This document shows, piece by piece, positions 330 to 56,692 of a stretch of DNA of 64,000 nt. The position numbers were made by a program, and so were the translations under genes. The notes below the pieces were generated by a model. The model did not search any database and had not been told where the DNA came from. It saw nothing but the letters and a program-made list of their open reading frames with translations. The stretch comes from Chromobacterium violaceum ATCC 12472 (GTDB lineage: Bacteria > Pseudomonadota > Gammaproteobacteria > Burkholderiales > Chromobacteriaceae), in NCBI RefSeq assembly GCF_000007705.1, contig NC_005085.1, positions 2,923,752-2,987,751 of the forward strand, read 5' to 3'. Numbering within the stretch: the first letter of the stretch is position 1; every line of letters begins with the position of its first letter.

Positions 330-1070
330 TTACTTCTCTAGCGTGGCATGAAAAATCTTCTGAGCAACGGATAAAGAGTCTGTTTTCAATGCAACATGCA
401 CTGCATCATATGATTTTTTCAACCCATCGTAAGTCATATAGGTTGGACCATCGCCCCACAAAGTTTCCTTCCCTTCGACCAAAATATCGCCATTTCCCGT
501 CTGCAATACATATTCAGTCACAACCACAGGCTTATAAGAAGAGGTCATAGACTCCGCACCATAGCCCAACGATGTTCTCAACAGAAGAGCTGCGCTGCCC
601 TCCTCTTTGGAATCGCTGGCGGCGGGCTTCCACACGAGCTTCTCGCCAAGGGGCCTATCAATTTCCACCAACTTAACCTTACGGCCAGTCGAGGCAACGA
701 ACTCAGCCAGCTTGCTAGCCTGGTCTTGGTCAATGTCGCTTTCATGGGCTCGCATCAGCTCCGAGAACTCATGGCTTCGAACATCTGCTCGATCTGAGGC
801 TGTCAGCTTACTTGCAGCATGAGCGCCAAGCGAGGCAAGCAAACCGACAACCCCAAACATCCCGCCAAGCCCTGACATGCCAGAGCCACCCAGGTCCATC
901 ACCGCATAATCTGTTTTATGGTAATAGATATCAACTGTTTTAATGGAATCTATCTTGCTTTTATTGGCGTCCTTTTGCGAAGGCACGTTAGCTGTCGCAC
1001 ATCCACTCAGCGAAGAAACAACAATCGAAAAGGACAACAAACCACATAACACTTTGGATTTAACCATCAA
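330..1070 (-). CDS. Putative lipoprotein, unknown function
   Basis: A 246-residue protein with a lipoprotein signal: hydrophobic residues 7-20, then LSGC with the lipidated Cys at about residue 24. A Gly/Met-rich hydrophobic patch (about residues 59-88) follows and could insert in a membrane. The C-terminal half is soluble-looking, with alternating polar and beta-like segments. No known domain was recognised. Two adjacent ATG codons (1070 and 1067) are possible starts. Base composition is lower in G+C than the flanking efflux operon, and the upstream 440 bases are AT-rich, so horizontal acquisition is possible. Being a lipoprotein is well supported; its role is unknown. Confidence 0.75.
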   Translation of the reverse strand: MMVKSKVLCGLLSFSIVVSSLSGCATANVPSQKDANKSKIDSIKTVDIYYHKTDYAVMDLGGSGMSGLGGMFGVVGLLASLGAHAASKLTASDRADVRSHEFSELMRAHESDIDQDQASKLAEFVASTGRKVKLVEIDRPLGEKLVWKPAASDSKEEGSAALLLRTSLGYGAESMTSSYKPVVVTEYVLQTGNGDILVEGKETLWGDGPTYMTYDGLKKSYDAVHVALKTDSLSVAQKIFHATLEK

Positions 1071-49619: not shown

Positions 49620-49963
49620 CGGATGCTCTCTATTCGTCAAAATGCCGCAGCCAAATTTCGCCAGGGCATATGACCGCCGTTATAACCGGGAGCGCAGCCG
49701 CCATCCATACCTCCCTGCTGCGTATCAAAACAATGCGGAATAAAAAATCGACAGACTTGCCCAAACAAATCAGCAAACGCGCAATTTATTCCCCTGTACA
49801 CACCTATTTTGCAATTCCTCGCCCAATATTCAAATACATTGAAAAACTCCATCTCGGAATACAAGAAGACCGCCCACCGATTTGGCACTATTGCCAATAT
49901 TACAATTGTTAACAATCCATCCCCTTCTCTATAATCTCCCGATCCACACTTCACGCCAACATC
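49620..49963. other. Divergent AT-rich gap before the MoxR operon
   Basis: A 344-base region between the GH18 and MoxR genes, AT-rich from 49741 to 49940. It contains the GH18 upstream region on one side and the candidate MoxR promoter on the other. No gene was supported; short frames here lack ribosome-binding sites and family features. Confidence 0.55.
49906..49935 (+). promoter_or_regulatory. Candidate sigma-70 promoter of the MoxR-bpX operon
   Basis: TTGTTA (49906-49911) and a perfect TATAAT (49930-49935) are 18 bases apart. The predicted start would leave a leader of about 20 bases, and no clear Shine-Dalgarno sequence precedes the ATG at 49964. Confidence 0.6.
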
Positions 49964-51079
49964 ATGAATTCGCAGCTGCAGCACGCATCCGCTCAAGTCC
50001 GCTCCGCCATCCGCTCCGCTACCCAAGGGCTGGTCGGCAGGGAGCAACTCGCAGAATTGATCATCCTCGCCGCCGTGGCCCAGGAGCACCTGCTGGTAAT
50101 AGGCCCGCCCGGCACAGCCAAAAGCGCCGTCGTGCGCCGGGTCGCCCAAGCGATGGGCGGCCGTTACTTCGAATACCTGCTTGGCCGCTACACCGAACCT
50201 TCCGAGCTGTTCGGCGCGGTAGACCTGCGCAAGCTGCGCGAAGGCACAGTGGAAACCGATACCACCGGCATGCTGCCGGAGGCTGAAGTCGCCTTCCTAG
50301 ACGAGGTTTTCCTCGGCTCCACCGCCATCCTCAACACCCTGCTGGGCATTCTGAACGAGCGCCGCTTCCGCCGCGGCCACACCCAGCTGCATTGCCCGCT
50401 GCGCGTTTGCATAGGCGCGGCCAACGGTTTGCCCGACGATGCCTCGCTGGCGGCCTTTGGCGACCGCTTCCTGCTGCACGCCTTCATCGAAGCCACGGCT
50501 GATCATCAGCTGGAAGCGATGCTGGAGGGCGGCTGGCAAGCCGAACAGGCCCCGGCGGCAAGCGAGATCAGCCTGGCGGACATCGATCTGCTGTGCCAGG
50601 CGGCGCGCGAAGTGGACATGCGCGCGGTCCGCCCCATGCTGGCGCAGGCTATCCGCCAATTGCGCGGCGCCGGCATCAGCTTGTCCGACCGGCGCATCGT
50701 CAAATCCCAGCGCCTGGTCGCCGCCGCCGCCGCGCTCGCCGGACGCATGCGCGCCGACGCCTCCGACCTGTGGCCGCTGCTGTACGCGCTGCCAACCCAG
50801 GAAGCCCAGCAGCACGCCCGCGAAATATTGCGCGAGCAGTTGGCGGCTTGCGCCAATGGCGTGCTGGCCAGCGCGGTGGAAACCGCGGCCGTGCAGCCGC
50901 TGTCCCGCGTCCAGCGCCTGCTGGAAAACGCGCAATGCGCGCTGGACGCGGAGACAGACCTATCGTCCATCGAAGCCCTGCTGCGCGAGATCGACGCCAA
51001 CTTCAGCGCCGATGGCATGCCGGACGAGCTGGCCGCTTCGCGCGAAAAACTGGCTGCGCGCCTGGCGGAGCCCGCATGA
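49964..51079 (+). CDS. MoxR-family AAA+ ATPase
   Basis: A 371-residue MoxR/RavA-type ATPase. Walker A is GPPGTAKS (47-54), Walker B VAFLDE (109-114) with EVFLGST, sensor 1 is in GAANGLP, and the Arg finger is in DRFLLHAF. The lid domain is near 235-290 and a Gln/Ala/Glu-rich C-terminal helical tail follows. MoxR ATPases act as chaperones that remodel protein complexes with vWA partners. It is the first gene of a four-gene coupled operon whose third product has a vWA-like domain and propeller, so it is assigned to a MoxR-vWA-beta-propeller ternary system. Confidence 0.92.
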   Translation: MNSQLQHASAQVRSAIRSATQGLVGREQLAELIILAAVAQEHLLVIGPPGTAKSAVVRRVAQAMGGRYFEYLLGRYTEPSELFGAVDLRKLREGTVETDTTGMLPEAEVAFLDEVFLGSTAILNTLLGILNERRFRRGHTQLHCPLRVCIGAANGLPDDASLAAFGDRFLLHAFIEATADHQLEAMLEGGWQAEQAPAASEISLADIDLLCQAAREVDMRAVRPMLAQAIRQLRGAGISLSDRRIVKSQRLVAAAAALAGRMRADASDLWPLLYALPTQEAQQHAREILREQLAACANGVLASAVETAAVQPLSRVQRLLENAQCALDAETDLSSIEALLREIDANFSADGMPDELAASREKLAARLAEPA

Positions 51080-51525
51080 GCGGCTCCGCCATCGCTTGGC
51101 ATTGGCAGCCCGTTCCGGAAAGCGACATTGCCGCCCCGCAGGCGGCGGTCGCCTTCGGCGATGCCGCGGAGCGCCTGCTGAAACGGCTGGAAACCATGCC
51201 TGCCGAACGACGCAGCGCGCTGATGCTGAGCGCAGGCGAAGGCCTGCTGGTGGCGCTGGGTCCGGAACACGCGCTGCCCTGGGTCGAGAGCGTCGAATAC
51301 GCCCGTCCCGATGACTCGGTCCGACAGCTGTGGCTGCCGACCAAGTGGCAGCCGGACGTTTCCACCGACGCGCTGGCCACTGCGCTGAACATCCGCTCCC
51401 CGGTCTGGCCGATGCTGCTCTGGCGCCAACCCGCGCTCATCATTCCCTTGAACCGGCAATGGCCGGCCGGCGACGACTTGCTGGCCGACATCCGCCGCCG
51501 CTGGAGCGGCGCATACCGCTCCTGA
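51076..51525 (+). CDS. Small protein of the MoxR ternary operon (bpX0-like)
   Basis: A 149-residue soluble protein overlapping the ATPase stop by ATGA. It starts SGSAIAWHWQPVPESDI and contains a conserved-looking core EGLLVALGPEHALPWVESVEYA (about 56-77, shown in two parts: EGLLVALGPEHALP and WVESVEYA) and PVWPMLLWRQPALIIPLN, ending in a basic helix. I recognise no catalytic motif. Position and size match the small non-propeller component of bpX ternary systems. It probably bridges the ATPase and the propeller proteins. The exact bpX subfamily is not certain. Confidence 0.75.
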   Translation: MSGSAIAWHWQPVPESDIAAPQAAVAFGDAAERLLKRLETMPAERRSALMLSAGEGLLVALGPEHALPWVESVEYARPDDSVRQLWLPTKWQPDVSTDALATALNIRSPVWPMLLWRQPALIIPLNRQWPAGDDLLADIRRRWSGAYRS

Positions 51526-51544
51526 ACTCCGGCTGACCATACTT

Positions 51545-53338
51545 ATGCGATTACCCGAAGCGCTCATGCCATGGCATGACTGCCTGAACGGCTTTTCCGC
51601 CGAGCTCGCCACCGAGCTGGGCGAGCTACTGCGACGCCTCGCCCCGGCGCTGGGCGTCCACCATGACGCCAGCCGCGGCGACGAGCTGGCCGCGCAAGGC
51701 CTGGACGACTTGCGCCGCCGCGGCTCCTACCAACGCCTGCTGGCGTCGGAATGGCTGCTGGCCGACGAAGTCCCCGACGAATTCCTGCGCCGCGCCGCCA
51801 GCGGCGAACATCTATTCCTGTCGCCCGCCCCGCGCGAACGCCAGGCCGACCGGCGCATCGTCGCGCTGTTCCATGCCGGCAGCTGGCAGCTGGGCGCGCC
51901 CAGGCTGGCCCATCTGGCGCTGTGCATCCTGCTCGATCACCGCGCCAGGGCCGCCGGCGGCGAATTCCATTGGGGCAGCCTGCAGGCGCCGGGCGAATGG
52001 CGGCAAGGTGCCGCGCCCGATGCGCTGAAACAGCTGCTGCGTGCCCGCGCCTACCGCAATTTCAACGCCCAGCTGTACCAGGCGTGGCTCGACGATCTGT
52101 CTACGCGGCCCGCCGCCGACGAGTGCTGGCTGGTAGGCTACCCCCTGGACCAGCAAGGCCTGCTGGCGCCGCAGTTCACCCACCAGGCCGACATCGCGCC
52201 CACGCTGCGCGGCGACGCGTTGCGCGTCGCCATCCGCGATCGCCGCGGCGAGCGCGCGCTAAAGCTGCCGCTGCCGTCCGGCGATGCCGGCCTCGCGCTG
52301 CTGCAGGGGCGCTTCCAAGCCGGCCAGGCTACCGTGCGGACAGAGACGCGGCGCTTTTCCCTGCGTCACGCGCCGCTGCTGTCTCCCAATGGCCGCCATG
52401 TCGCCGTCTCGCTTCAGGGCGGCTACGCGGCACTGATGCTGCCGGTGGACAAACCGGGACAAACATCGAAACAGAAGGCGCGCCAGCTGCAATGGCACAG
52501 GGCCAGCACCCTGCTGGCGCGGGCATTCACGGCCAAGACCCTGGGCGCCGTGGTTCAGCGCGGCGCCCAGCTGAGCTGCCTGCAGTTCCCGCGCATAGGC
52601 AAGGTGCCGCTGCCGCAGCAGGCCGAATTCCATGCTTCCCCGGGATCCTCCACCTTGCTGGATGCCGCCTGGCTGCCCGGCAAATCCGGCGGCAGGCTGT
52701 ATTTGCGCGACTTGAACGGCAATCTTGTCTATTGGGAAAGCGGGGGCGCTGCCGGAACCGCCCCCATGCGCCAACAATGCGGCGGCGTGCAGGCCCTCTG
52801 CCAGATAGACGGCGCCTCCCTGCTATACGCCCGCCAGCAGAACGGCCAGCTCCGTCTAGGCTGGCTGGGCGCCGATCACGACCAGAAGGCGGTGGAAGTC
52901 GCCCCCGGCATCGCGGCCGACACCTATAGTCGAGTGTTGCTGCACGGGCTGCCGCAAGACCGGCGCTTCGCCTGCGCGGTCCTGCTGCGCGGCGGCGAGC
53001 GGGAAAGCTGGCGGCTACACGCCGGCAGCGGCGGCGGCGCGCCGGATGGCCGGGAATGCCTGCTTCCCGCAGGCTGGCGCGCGATAGGCGTGCAATTGAC
53101 CGACAAGCCGCGCTTGCTGCTGGTCCACGACAAGCAGAATCAGATCGCCCTGCTGGACGAAGACAAGATCCTGCCGTTGTACGGGACTGCGTCGCCGATC
53201 GCCCGGCTCAGCTATACGCCCTCCTGCGCCGGCATCGCGCTGCTGACCGAACAAAGAGAGTTGATCGTGTACTCCCTGGCCGCCCGCGCCGTGGTTCTCC
53301 ATCTGCAAAACCAGGCCGCAGGCAAAGCACATGACTGA
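51545..53338 (+). CDS. Degenerate vWA domain plus beta-propeller protein
   Basis: A 597-residue protein. An N-terminal helical region (SEWLLADEVPDEFLRRA, about 61-77) leads to a Rossmann/vWA-like domain (about 98-215). There the metal-binding DxSxS is replaced by HAGSW (VALFHAGSWQLGAPRL), so metal binding is probably lost. A seven-blade propeller follows (about 260-590), seen as repeats such as RHVAVSLQGGYAALML, GRLYLRDLNGNLVYWE and PRLLLVHDKQNQIALLDE. It starts 19 bases after the small gene and overlaps the next by 8. It fits the vWA-propeller component of MoxR ternary systems. Confidence 0.82.
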   Translation: MRLPEALMPWHDCLNGFSAELATELGELLRRLAPALGVHHDASRGDELAAQGLDDLRRRGSYQRLLASEWLLADEVPDEFLRRAASGEHLFLSPAPRERQADRRIVALFHAGSWQLGAPRLAHLALCILLDHRARAAGGEFHWGSLQAPGEWRQGAAPDALKQLLRARAYRNFNAQLYQAWLDDLSTRPAADECWLVGYPLDQQGLLAPQFTHQADIAPTLRGDALRVAIRDRRGERALKLPLPSGDAGLALLQGRFQAGQATVRTETRRFSLRHAPLLSPNGRHVAVSLQGGYAALMLPVDKPGQTSKQKARQLQWHRASTLLARAFTAKTLGAVVQRGAQLSCLQFPRIGKVPLPQQAEFHASPGSSTLLDAAWLPGKSGGRLYLRDLNGNLVYWESGGAAGTAPMRQQCGGVQALCQIDGASLLYARQQNGQLRLGWLGADHDQKAVEVAPGIAADTYSRVLLHGLPQDRRFACAVLLRGGERESWRLHAGSGGGAPDGRECLLPAGWRAIGVQLTDKPRLLLVHDKQNQIALLDEDKILPLYGTASPIARLSYTPSCAGIALLTEQRELIVYSLAARAVVLHLQNQAAGKAHD

Positions 53339-56240
53339 AAACCTCTCCTTAGGCTCCGAAATACGCCAGCCGGTGCTGAGCGGCCGCGCATGGCTGTCCG
53401 GCCTCTGGTTGCCCGCCGACCGGTACGGCGAGTCCGAACGCCGGCTTCGCATCCTGGCCAACTGGCACGCGGGCGCCGCCGCCTACCGCTTTCCGGAAGG
53501 CGATCTGCTGCGCTACGCCGCGCCCATGGAGCAGGATTGCGAACGCCTGCCCGGCTGGCCATTGCAAAAGCTGGGCCGCACCCTGTGCTCGGCGCGGATA
53601 GCGGCCGACGAATATGAAAAACTGCCCGCGGCCGACCTGTGGCTGGTCCGGGGCGGCAAGGTGCAGGCACTGAGGCTGGCGGACGCCGAGGTTCTCAAGC
53701 CTGGCGAATGGCTGGACGTGTCCGCGCCCGCCATCCACGCGATGTACGATTGCCACATCGCCGAAGCCGCGCAGGAACAACCGTTGGCCCCCACCACGCA
53801 GGGCATACGACAGCTGTTGGGCGAGCGGATCCCCGCCGCCAGCCACGAGCAAAAGCAGTTTCTCAGCGCCCTGCAAGCAGGGCGCGCTACGCCGTCGGCC
53901 GCCACGGCCAAGGCGCCCGCCTGGCGCAAACCGCTGATCGCGCTTGCCGTGCTCGGCGCCTGCCTGGCGCTGGGCGCCTTCATCGCCTCCTCCGGCGGCG
54001 ATGGCGGACCCTCGTCCACAGGATCCGGCCCATCTTCCGGCGGCGCCCACTTTTTCCCCTGGCTGATGCTGATCGCGCTGGCCGTCCGCTCATGGCAAAA
54101 CAGACAGGAATCCGCCCCGCGGAAGACATCCGTTCCATCCCAGCCATCCAGCCCGAAGCAGGCTGGCGGAACCCGGAAAACAAGCAAGCCGGGCGCCATC
54201 GCCCAGGCGCTGATTCCCGCGCGGCGAAGCGTGGAGCGCGTGCTGCCCCAGGCCTGGCGCGACTGGCTGGCCCGCGCGGCGATGACCAGCCATCTGTCCG
54301 GCATCCTGGGCCGTCGCCAGGCCGCCTATATGCGGCAGATGCTGGAGATGTTCGAAAACGGCCGCCTGCAGGATGCCTTGCGCCACGCCATTCCGCTGGG
54401 AGGCGAAGGCGGCAGCGCCGGCCAGGCCTTCGGCCTGCCCCATGCCCGCCGTGACTTGAAGCTGGGGATGAGAAACGACGCCGCCGGACCCTCGATCGAT
54501 CTGGGCGAAGACCTCAACCGCCACCTGCGCCAGCTGTACCGCAAGACCTTCGAAAAGCTGGACCGGGAAGGCAATGTCGAGCAGGCGATATTCGTGCTGG
54601 CCGAGCTGCTGCAATCCCACGCCGAGGCGATCCATTACCTGGAGAAGCATGAGCGCTACAGCCAGGCCGCGGAGTTGGCCCTGCTCTGGGACATGGAAGC
54701 CTCTTTGATCGTGCGCCTGATGTGCCAGGCCGGCGATCTGCCGCGGGCGATGGCGGTGGCGAGACGCGACGGCACCTTCGCCGAGGCCATCGCCTTGCTG
54801 GAATCCCGCTGGCCGGTGGCGGCGCGCCAATTGCGCGAAGAATGGGCGCAGGCCCTGGTCGACCAGGGCCGCTGGCTGGACGCGGCGCAGGCGATCTGGC
54901 CGATAGCGTCGATGCGCGAACGCGCGACCGAATGGCTGCTGCGCGCGGAAGAGGCCGGCGGCAGCCTGGCCGCAGAGGCCGTGGTCAAGCGCGCCCGGCT
55001 GTTGCCGGACTCGCTGGACAGCCAGGAGGCGCGCATCCTGGCGATACGCGACGACGACGCCCGCGGGACGGAGCGCGCGGCGATCGCCCACGCCTTGCTG
55101 GCGCTGGACAGCCATAACGATGAAACCCGCCTGCTGGCGCGCGCCTTGTTCAACGCCTGGCTGGTCGACCAGGACAAAGGCATGGGCCGGCTCGGCACTC
55201 AGCAGCTGCAAGGCCTGCTGGACATCGCCCAGGATCCCCTGCTGCGCGCGGATCTGCCCGGCAAGCTGCCATCGCCCAAACCCAACCCCTTCGCCGACAA
55301 AAAGGAGGTGTCCTGGATATCCGTCCCCGCCGCCGGCGGCCAGGCGGTAAGCGACATCGCCTTGCTGCCCGACCTGCGCCTGCTGGTCGCGCAAGGCGAG
55401 GCCGGCGTCACCCTGCGCGACGACAGAGGCAAGGTTCTGCATCGTTTCTCCGCGCCGGCGGATAATATCGTACTGGCCGACAGCGGCCAGGTCGCCCTTG
55501 CCGCGATCCACCGCGGCGAGATGCTGTGCGTGCAGCGGCTGGACCTGGTGACGCGCGAACAGCGCGACCTGGGCGCCATCGCCGTCGATTGCTACGCCGC
55601 CAGCTTCGACGGCGTCGGCTGGACGGTCGGCCAGGGCGACGCGATCCGGATACTGGACACCGGCCACGGACTCGGCCGCGTGCTGTGGCAGATAGACAAG
55701 CTGCCGGGACGCGCGGTCCGCATTCTGCGCAGCCCGTCTTGCGAGCAGTACGAGCTGGTCGATCCCGACAATAAAATGCTGTTGTGGCAATACAGCCTGC
55801 CCGGCCGGCGGCTGGCGTCACGCGGCCATGTGCCGGCGCTGGAAAAGAATACCGAAGTATCGGTCATTCCTTCGCGCTGGGGCGGCTACCGCTACTTCTG
55901 GATGGCGTGGGACGAGAAGGACAGCCCCTGGCTGGTCAGCCAGCGCCCCGGCAAGGAAAAGGAGCATGGCCTGGCGCTGCCGCCCCAGATGTCCGGAGCC
56001 GCGATCAACGTCACCCTGGGCCGAGCGGGGCTGGCGGTATCGCTGCGACAGGAGAGCGATAGCTGCGTGGTACTGGCCCGCGACGGCGAATCGTATCCGG
56101 ACATCGCTTTCTCCTGGCCGGCCGGCGTCTTCGTCTGGACCAAAATGTACGGCGACTGCTGGCTGATGTTCGACCGCTTCGGCCGGGTCGCGATCATGGA
56201 CATGGAACGCTGCTACGCCAGCATGCTCACCATAGCCTGA
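53331..56240 (+). CDS. Membrane-anchored helical-solenoid and propeller protein (bpX6-like)
   Basis: A 969-residue protein with three parts. The first is an N-terminal globular domain (about 1-195). Two membrane helices follow (about 203-221, LIALAVLGACLALGAFIA, and 241-254, FFPWLMLIALAVRSW), flanking a Gly/Ser linker, so the termini face the same side. Then comes a helical solenoid (about 330-640; repeated AAELALLW, AMAVARRDGTFAEAIALLES, ARILAIRDDDARG) and a C-terminal propeller (about 665-965). It overlaps the previous gene by 8 bases. The plan matches the large propeller member of MoxR-vWA-bpX systems. It may tether the complex to the membrane; no enzyme motif was seen. Confidence 0.8.
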   Translation: MTENLSLGSEIRQPVLSGRAWLSGLWLPADRYGESERRLRILANWHAGAAAYRFPEGDLLRYAAPMEQDCERLPGWPLQKLGRTLCSARIAADEYEKLPAADLWLVRGGKVQALRLADAEVLKPGEWLDVSAPAIHAMYDCHIAEAAQEQPLAPTTQGIRQLLGERIPAASHEQKQFLSALQAGRATPSAATAKAPAWRKPLIALAVLGACLALGAFIASSGGDGGPSSTGSGPSSGGAHFFPWLMLIALAVRSWQNRQESAPRKTSVPSQPSSPKQAGGTRKTSKPGAIAQALIPARRSVERVLPQAWRDWLARAAMTSHLSGILGRRQAAYMRQMLEMFENGRLQDALRHAIPLGGEGGSAGQAFGLPHARRDLKLGMRNDAAGPSIDLGEDLNRHLRQLYRKTFEKLDREGNVEQAIFVLAELLQSHAEAIHYLEKHERYSQAAELALLWDMEASLIVRLMCQAGDLPRAMAVARRDGTFAEAIALLESRWPVAARQLREEWAQALVDQGRWLDAAQAIWPIASMRERATEWLLRAEEAGGSLAAEAVVKRARLLPDSLDSQEARILAIRDDDARGTERAAIAHALLALDSHNDETRLLARALFNAWLVDQDKGMGRLGTQQLQGLLDIAQDPLLRADLPGKLPSPKPNPFADKKEVSWISVPAAGGQAVSDIALLPDLRLLVAQGEAGVTLRDDRGKVLHRFSAPADNIVLADSGQVALAAIHRGEMLCVQRLDLVTREQRDLGAIAVDCYAASFDGVGWTVGQGDAIRILDTGHGLGRVLWQIDKLPGRAVRILRSPSCEQYELVDPDNKMLLWQYSLPGRRLASRGHVPALEKNTEVSVIPSRWGGYRYFWMAWDEKDSPWLVSQRPGKEKEHGLALPPQMSGAAINVTLGRAGLAVSLRQESDSCVVLARDGESYPDIAFSWPAGVFVWTKMYGDCWLMFDRFGRVAIMDMERCYASMLTIA

Positions 56241-56275
56241 TGGCTCTGCCTCATAACGATGACAAGGAATATTTG

Positions 56276-56692
56276 ATGATGAACGCAAGCATCCCCCTGC
56301 TCTGCCTGGCGCTGGCCGCCCCGATCGCCTCGGCGGCCGGCGCGCCGCAGGCCATGCTGGAAAACTATCTGGCCAAGGACGCCGCCGGCATGCGGCTGCA
56401 GGAATACCCGGCCGCCCGCTACTTCGCCAACTACCAGGACGAGCCGGGCTGGGACATGGTGACGCTGATCACCGGCTACGGCGTGCAGCCGCAGCAATGC
56501 GGCCCGCGCCGCTGCGAATTCGTGGTCCGCTATCAGCTGGATCCGACCCGCCCGTCCGACGAGCAGGCCAAGCCCCATCCCAAGGGCGGCGAGGAAAAGG
56601 CCCGCTACGTGGTGGTCAAGCAGGGCGGCGGCTGGAAGATAGACAGCGGCAGCATGCGCGAGCCGCACGTGAAGCGCGGCGCGTTGCGCTGA
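56276..56692 (+). CDS. Small periplasmic protein, unknown function
   Basis: A 138-residue protein with a signal peptide (about 1-20, ending IASAAG). The mature part is mixed polar, with QQCGPRRCEFVVRYQLDP (two Cys about 5 apart, possibly disulfide-bonded) and a Lys/Gly-rich turn, ending in WKIDSGSMREPHVKRG. I do not recognise the family. ATG codons at 56276 and 56279 are both possible; AGGAA about 9 bases upstream favours 56276. It follows the bpX6-like gene by 35 bases on the same strand and could be cotranscribed, but its secreted nature argues it is independent of the ATPase system. Confidence 0.72.
   Translation: MMNASIPLLCLALAAPIASAAGAPQAMLENYLAKDAAGMRLQEYPAARYFANYQDEPGWDMVTLITGYGVQPQQCGPRRCEFVVRYQLDPTRPSDEQAKPHPKGGEEKARYVVVKQGGGWKIDSGSMREPHVKRGALR

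What the first reader, a model, noticed from the sequence alone, without database searches (positions are those of the whole stretch)
49964..56240. Four-gene MoxR-vWA-beta-propeller (bpX) ternary system
Seen: four tightly coupled genes (overlaps of 4 and 8 bases, gap of 19) for a MoxR AAA+ ATPase, a 149-residue protein, a degenerate vWA plus propeller protein and a two-helix membrane protein with solenoid and propeller. Known: MoxR ATPases remodel complexes with vWA partners, and MoxR-vWA-propeller ternary systems have been predicted from comparative genomics as regulated conflict or stress systems. Inferred: this is such a system, here with a membrane tether. No effector nuclease or protease was seen among the four, so the executing step is unknown.
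Basis: partly seen in the sequence, partly recalled or inferred. Interest (0 to 1): 0.8.

Follow-up and report, generated by a model that had tools for sequence, protein, structure and literature searches.

The report
Four-gene MoxR ATPase–propeller cassette
Four tightly packed genes encode what looks like an ATP-driven protein-remodelling machine of a kind already predicted from genome comparisons; the locus is a genuine unit, and its fast-changing part hints at where it may recognise its target.

Summary
The genes and couplings are as described. A is a bpMoxR AAA+ ATPase, B bpX5, and D carries bpX6, all far above Pfam cut-offs; C has no Pfam match. AlphaFold2 models C confidently as helical head, alpha/beta layer and many-stranded propeller-like part. 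Its 'vWA' label rests on fold order and one degenerate motif; profile comparison gave nothing. The block fits the 'beta-propeller MoxR-vWA ternary system' of Kaur et al. 2020: a new member of a known kind. Added here: all four genes are found in order in 83 of 86 loci read (three cut by contig ends), chosen among the closest relatives; their gene trees largely agree; one congener lacks just these four genes. The block is patchy (4 of 19 in the genus, 19 of 298 in a Pseudomonas-branch genus), one copy each; tblastn of D found no phage record and one plasmid record. By our measure 17 of 66 D proteins lack a hydrophobic segment. C's propeller is its most variable part, lies in a 1.2-kb tract exchanged with another species, and C is multiplied in two Massilia loci. 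Most likely an ATP-driven remodelling complex, here membrane-tethered, with C as recognition part; an anti-invader role is unproven.

The parts
49906..49935 (+). sigma-70-like promoter TTGTTA-18-TATAAT ahead of gene A; the first hexamer lies in a perfect inverted repeat TTGTTAACAA
   Evidence: 10 of 12 matches; 1 found, 1.0 expected in shuffles, so by itself not significant; kept in congener G006, gapped in G007 and G010 (alignment)
49964..51079 (+). gene A: bpMoxR AAA+ ATPase, 371 aa; P-loop GPPGTAKS (residues 47-54), FLDE (111-114)
   Evidence: PF20030 E 1.7e-88; both motifs invariant in 6 of 6 aligned sequences
51076..51525 (+). gene B: bpX5 domain protein, 149 aa
   Evidence: PF19921 E 1.7e-48; L67 P68 W69, W86 and P119 invariant in 65 sequences
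51545..53338 (+). gene C: 597 aa, helical head, alpha/beta (possibly degenerate vWA) layer, propeller
   Evidence: AlphaFold2, mean pLDDT 87.5, pTM 0.72; no Pfam match, scattered weak ones among 70 relatives
51842..52294 (+). C residues 100-250, alpha/beta layer with motif FHAGSWQLGAPRL in place of FDxGPxQLGxxRL
   Evidence: Asp in 66 of 70 sequences, His in the three Chromobacterium rows, Glu in one
52334..53311 (+). C residues 264-589, 27 strands, beta-propeller
   Evidence: strands; Foldseek, viral library: best hit a WD-repeat protein, E 4.3e-09; TM-scores by query 0.12-0.34 in the 50 rows shown; aligned ranges not given
52281..53470 (.). recombination tract: 10 mismatches in 1,190 bases against congener G006; covers the C propeller (from residue ~246) and the first ~47 codons of D
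   Evidence: control (558 overlapping windows of 300 bases over 57 kb, mean 85.8%, sd 6.6; no window outside the tract reaches 98%)
53331..56240 (+). gene D: 969 aa, bpX6 domain, membrane segment, conserved middle (306-660), C-terminal region (661-969) that may be a propeller
   Evidence: middle and C-terminal folds not modelled here; weak profile signal for a propeller
53361..53870 (+). bpX6 domain (D residues 11-180)
   Evidence: PF19922 E 3.4e-57
53934..53990 (+). predicted transmembrane helix of D (residues 202-220)
   Evidence: hydropathy 2.46 over 19 residues
54051..54086 (+). short second hydrophobic stretch of D (about residues 241-252); second helix not certain
   Evidence: read from the sequence; below the 1.4 threshold
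49632..56277 (.). unit present here and absent from congener G009, where about 310 bases without detectable similarity stand instead
   Evidence: homology ends at 49631 and resumes at 56278

Best explanation
The block is a bpX5/bpX6-type member of the MoxR-vWA-beta-propeller ternary systems. Shown: a four-gene, co-inherited cassette; an AAA+ ATPase with intact P-loop and Walker B motifs; C with a modelled propeller; D with bpX6 and, here, a membrane segment. Inferred: A forms a hexamer that docks on C's head and degenerate vWA-like layer. C's propeller captures a client or an invader product. D is the scaffold, here membrane-anchored, that meets C through its own propeller; B is a small adaptor. 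ATP hydrolysis by A rearranges the C-D complex, switching it on or releasing the client. The most variable and exchanged element, C's propeller, is the likely recognition surface. Whether the trigger is a phage, another invader or an internal stress is open.
For: Pfam matches of A, B, D. P-loop GPPGTAKS, the GXXXTAKS form noted for these systems. All four genes in order in 83 of 86 loci; gaps between -60 and 100 bases in 85 of 85 (A-B), 81 of 84 (B-C) and 79 of 83 (C-D). Gene trees from 76 loci: 30-45 supported splits shared and 0-4 conflicting supported pairs per comparison, against at most 2 shared splits with shuffled labels in the two comparisons controlled. A congener lacks exactly this unit. 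C model. Column identity in C falls from head 0.535 to alpha/beta 0.388 to propeller 0.291 and 0.22. Recombination tract over the C propeller with a 57-kb control. C in tandem copies in two Massilia loci. Purifying selection on all four genes.
Against: The vWA assignment of C fails the profile tests, and the Chromobacterium rows have lost the one MIDAS-like Asp. D's solenoid and propeller were not modelled. Foldseek TM-scores for C are low. 17 of 66 D proteins lack a hydrophobic segment, so membrane action may not be essential to the whole family. No contact between partners has been shown. The recombination tract is one event and extends into D.
Confidence: 0.6

Rival explanations
1. Anti-invader (abortive-infection type) system, as Kaur et al. 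predict: infection is sensed by a variable part, and D's N-terminal region and membrane segment act as the effector.
For: Patchy presence; fast-evolving and exchanged part; tandem C copies; published inference for the class. In P. syringae clade 2b-a the same four gene types lie in one region of genome plasticity.
Against: Among 107 nearest neighbours scanned, the commonest Pfam families are regulators and transporters; PADLOC matches were few: IetA and TRIP13-type ATPases in two members each, RtcR, SoFic, PDC-S24 and Csa3 in one each. tblastn of D: 0 of 50,697 phage and 1 of 72,556 plasmid records. PADLOC on the four proteins: only weak ATPase hits to A. The tree mostly keeps genera together (by eye). 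17 of 66 D proteins lack a hydrophobic segment.
Confidence: 0.3
2. A chaperone-like system comparable to RavA-ViaA or NorQ-NorD in action: it matures or repairs a membrane or envelope complex under stress, without an invader.
For: One copy in each carrier; largely genus-wise tree (by eye); a hydrophobic segment in 49 of 66 D proteins; the general MoxR-vWA mechanism described in PMC7159879 section 8.
Against: Present in few species of the genera sampled; no neighbour family is shared by more than 13 loci, so no constant client gene beside it; variable recognition part. A scores 152.9 bits against RavA's cut-off of 681.
Confidence: 0.3
3. C is not a vWA protein: its alpha/beta layer is a separate fold and the ATPase works through B or the helical head of C.
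For: No profile similarity to vWA; after the first alpha/beta half the model turns into a three-strand meander (213-242); the head is more conserved than the alpha/beta layer.
Against: The order strand-helix-strand-helices-strand and the Asp-x-Gly turn after strand 1 resemble the start of a vWA domain (my reading); Kaur et al. report vWA domains without one or both Asp in this class.
Confidence: 0.2

Closest known systems
MoxR-vWA subsystem 4, beta-propeller-containing ternary systems (Kaur et al. 2020, PMC7159879; Pfam bpMoxR, bpX5, bpX6)
   Same: bpMoxR ATPase with GXXXTAKS P-loop, propeller in the second component, third component with N-terminal globular domain and membrane segment, extra small conserved gene, no conventional effector found; Pseudomonas and Xanthomonas among the carriers
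   Different: C matches no Pfam family; part of the D proteins lack a hydrophobic segment; C in tandem copies in two Massilia loci; one actinobacterial copy
[quoted passage not shown] RGP_32; PMC9677677 Table 2)
   Same: same four gene types in the same order in the table
   Different: listed as accessory genes; no system is discussed in the section and passages read
RavA
   Same: MoxR AAA+ ATPase (NCBIfam RavA E 1.5e-44)
   Different: 152.9 bits against a cut-off of 681; partners here are bpX5, C and bpX6

Membership tests
beta-propeller MoxR-vWA ternary system | bpMoxR ATPase, often with GXXXTAKS P-loop | tested here: met
   PF20030 E 1.7e-88; GPPGTAKS in 6 of 6
beta-propeller MoxR-vWA ternary system | vWA component | tested here: inconclusive
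   no profile match; alpha/beta order and one degenerate motif only
[quoted passage not shown]
   AlphaFold2 model with 27 strands from 264 to 589; Foldseek matches to WD-repeat and BTB/WD proteins, TM-scores low; weak profile signal
beta-propeller MoxR-vWA ternary system | third component with variable N-terminal globular domain and membrane segment | tested here: met
   bpX6; hydrophobic helix 202-220
beta-propeller MoxR-vWA ternary system | TPR and propeller regions at the C-terminus of the third component | tested here: inconclusive
   D 661-969 against BamB: P 0.0036 but hhalign probability only 9.2% (21 comparisons in all); no model
beta-propeller MoxR-vWA ternary system | no conventional effector; in a subset an additional conserved linked gene | tested here: met
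   no enzyme domain other than the ATPase in Pfam and NCBIfam scans; B = bpX5
RavA (NCBIfam equivalog) | score above the curated cut-off | tested here: not met
   152.9 against 681 bits
known anti-phage systems (PADLOC-DB 2.0.0) | clear match to a system protein | tested here: not met
   four weak hits to A (best E 0.00067), none for B, C, D

The most novel reading that the evidence does not exclude
The C propeller is an exchangeable recognition cartridge of a constant ATP-driven machine: species swap it by homologous recombination and some Massilia keep several C paralogs in tandem, so one MoxR-bpX5-bpX6 core could serve several targets, much as other conflict systems vary their sensor.
Probability: 0.2. 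Interest if true: 0.62.

Novelty: new member of a known kind. Interest (0 to 1): 0.42.

Why it matters
No experimental study of a bpX5/bpX6 system appeared in the rows listed by our searches of the held library (searches matched more papers than they listed). The minimal unit is now well bounded: four genes that are present or absent together in related Chromobacterium. That makes the open question, whether these ternary systems fight invaders or tend membrane complexes, testable with a clean deletion and a swap of the C propeller.

Tried and rejected
Rejected or not supported: (1) vWA in C by Pfam (no vWA family among the 14 that any of 70 members matched) and by hhalign against a profile of up to 20 vWA domains, many of them near-identical (the run used some wrong-strand sequences and was discarded). 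(2) An amphipathic helix replacing the membrane segment where that is missing: 3 of 18 D proteins tested clearly exceeded shuffles. (3) A fifth gene at 56240-56692: it overlaps D's stop by one base, but most of it persists in G009 without the block and it is missing in G007, which has the block. (4) Relics of the block in G009's 310-base spacer: no significant match. (5) Carriage by viruses: viral-contig scans with D and with the A alignment gave no relative, tblastn of D in phages none. (6) bpX4 in 200 genomes: nothing rang, uninformative. (7) Solved structures with profiles of C, D, B: no E below 0.5; the best for C were WD-repeat proteins at E 0.59 and 0.7.

Limits: the 80 genome-contig loci are the best 80 of 239 relatives of A, so the set's conservation is shown for the closest A relatives only. 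Three loci repeat genomes already held (L017=L011, L018=L009, L075=L013), leaving 80 of 83 distinct loci with all four genes; in L062, L066, L081 and L090 C or D is incomplete or split. The neighbour scan took 107 of the 138 nearest genes listed (31 left out by hand, mostly short ones, near-duplicates and some very long ones), and 25 of 88 Pfam families were shown. The tree is midpoint-rooted and was read by eye without support values. D and the complexes were not modelled, and the C model could not be searched against solved structures.
Full report
What is there. A matches bpMoxR (PF20030, E 1.7e-88), B bpX5 (PF19921, 1.7e-48), D bpX6 (PF19922, 3.4e-57, residues 11-180); C matches no Pfam model. 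NCBIfam RavA is hit at 152.9 bits against a cut-off of 681, and PADLOC gives only four weak hits to A. The P-loop GPPGTAKS and FLDE are invariant in 6 of 6 aligned A sequences.

Which organism. The window lies at 2,923,752-2,987,751 of a single 4,751,080-base contig.

One unit. Starting from bpX6 hits and from relatives of A, 86 loci were read. All four genes are detected in the order A-B-C-D on one strand in 83 of 86; the other three are cut by contig ends. Median gaps are -4, -1 and -8 bases. In four of the 83 (L062, L066, L081, L090) C or D is incomplete or split. Trees of the four proteins from 76 loci agree well: 0 to 4 conflicting pairs of supported splits per comparison (an approximate count) and 30 to 45 supported splits shared; with shuffled labels, tested for A-D and C-D, the mean shared was 0.04 and 0.2. 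In congener G009 the homology stops at window base 49631 and resumes at 56278 with about 310 bases between; G004 and G008 lack a longer stretch. So these four genes come and go together. On the left flank G009 is closer to the window (88%) than the carriers G006, G007 and G010 are (83, 81, 78%); on the right it is 86% against 80, 86 (part) and 83%. Loss in G009 is therefore a simple reading, not a proven one.

Distribution. bpX6 occurs in 4 of 61 genomes among relatives, all in the genus (4 of 19; 0 of 42 outside), in 3 of 398 across the phylum including the window's own, and in 19 of 298 of the genus of G248, whose locus sits in the Pseudomonas branch of the tree. Each carrier in these three searches has one match. 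The closest A relatives come from Pseudomonas, Xanthomonas, Lysobacter, Variovorax, Massilia, Duganella, Janthinobacterium, Proteus, Gilliamella and Frischella among others. The tree mostly keeps genera together; P. alcaligenes and P. otitidis stand outside the main Pseudomonas branch, next to a branch of betaproteobacteria and Lysobacter relatives, which suggests a transfer (no support values shown). tblastn of D found none of 50,697 phage records and one of 72,556 plasmid records. That one, a 5.7-Mb Embleya replicon, has A, C and D by tblastn; B (an LPW motif between A and C) and a two-segment membrane region in D were recognised by eye. Of 107 nearest neighbours the commonest Pfam families are LysR regulators (8), MFS transporters (4), lipid A acyltransferases (3) and ABC permeases (3). 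PADLOC matched IetA and TRIP13-type ATPases in two members each, and RtcR, SoFic, PDC-S24 and Csa3 models in one each. That does not look like a defence island, though only nearest genes were seen and 63 of 88 Pfam families were not listed.

Protein C. AlphaFold2 with 70 sequences gives mean pLDDT 87.5 and pTM 0.72: helices to residue 85, an alpha/beta layer (strands 104-109, 140-145, 193-197 with helices 119-136, 158-166, 175-187), a three-strand meander at 213-242, and 27 strands from 264 to 589, which would make about seven blades (my estimate). Foldseek against viral predictions puts a WD-repeat protein first (E 4.3e-09); WD-repeat and BTB/WD proteins are common among the 50 rows shown, beside phage proteins of other names; TM-scores by query are at most 0.34 and the aligned ranges are not given. 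The vWA label is weaker. The turn after strand 1 reads FDxGPxQLGxxRL; the Asp is kept in 66 of 70, is Glu in one and His in the three Chromobacterium rows. Profile comparison with up to 20 vWA domains found nothing. Against a BamB propeller profile, D 661-969 and C 251-597 were the best two of seven regions (P 0.0036 and 0.014, but hhalign probabilities of only 9.2 and 3.2%; 21 comparisons in all).

Protein D. One strong hydrophobic helix (202-220) and a short second stretch lie between bpX6 and the conserved middle. Across 66 D proteins this region has two or more hydrophobic peaks in 32, one in 17 and none in 17; of the last, 14 come from Lysobacter, Xanthomonas, Stenotrophomonas, Tahibacter and other members of that order, and one each from Pseudomonas, Proteus and Massilia. 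It is also the least conserved region of D (0.183), while residues 306-480 are the most conserved (0.54). A membrane segment is therefore common but, by this measure, not universal.

Where it changes. Column identity in C falls from head to propeller: 0.535, 0.388, 0.291, 0.22. Against congener G006, bases 52281-53470 carry 10 mismatches in 1,190, while 558 overlapping windows of 300 bases over 57 kb average 85.8% (sd 6.6); two windows elsewhere reach 97%, none 98%. The tract covers the C propeller and the first 47 or so codons of D. dS against G006 is 0.11 for C but 0.63, 0.30 and 0.47 for A, B and D, as expected from such an exchange. Two Massilia loci carry tandem C copies: two in L088 (37-39% identical) and at least four in L090 (29-77%). 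All this fits C's propeller as the recognition part, but it is one exchange event and two loci of one genus.

What was known. PMC7159879 (outline, passages, sections 8 and 22 and part 1 of 2 of section 35) predicts these beta-propeller ternary systems, notes the lack of conventional effectors, the membrane segment and the GXXXTAKS P-loop, and proposes conflict with invaders. PMC9677677 (section 9 and passages) lists the same four gene types as unique to P. syringae clade 2b-a in one region of genome plasticity. Other papers were seen only in search listings. No experimental work on bpX5 or bpX6 appeared in the rows listed.

Verdict. The genes are real and the interpretation right in kind. It is a new member of a published class for which we found no experiment, with added facts on its unit, spread and variable part. 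The mechanism offered, ATP-driven rearrangement of a C-D complex by A, follows from the MoxR-vWA literature and remains inference.

Noticed in passing
L090:11469-19750 and L088:11379-14971: Tandem C paralogs between B and D in two Massilia loci (at least four and two copies, 29-77% identical); an alpha-2-macroglobulin-type gene lies upstream (Pfam in L088; same cluster in L090, L091, L094).
   Followed up: partly
L122:5580-12022: An A-B-C-D set on a 5.7-Mb Embleya (actinobacterial) replicon; A, C, D by tblastn, B and the membrane region by eye.
   Followed up: partly
L066:11557-13476; L081:11229-16317: C (L066) and C and D (L081) are each split over two reading frames, in a Proteus and a Pseudomonas genome: decayed copies or sequencing errors.
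   Followed up: no
window:1-2000: GC drops to 0.478 against 0.60-0.72 in the other 31 bins of 2 kb; it holds a 246-aa ORF with a lipoprotein-like start (330-1070, minus strand) and no Pfam match at E 0.001.
   Followed up: no
window:56732-57352: 206-aa ORF without a Pfam match next to the block; the stretch is missing in G004 and G008 (no block) and in G007 (has the block).
   Followed up: no
L088:20225-21112 (minus), L091:19339-20352 (minus): A second, more distant MoxR-type frame matches the A profile (213 and 242 bits) a few kilobases from the block in two Massilia loci.
   Followed up: no
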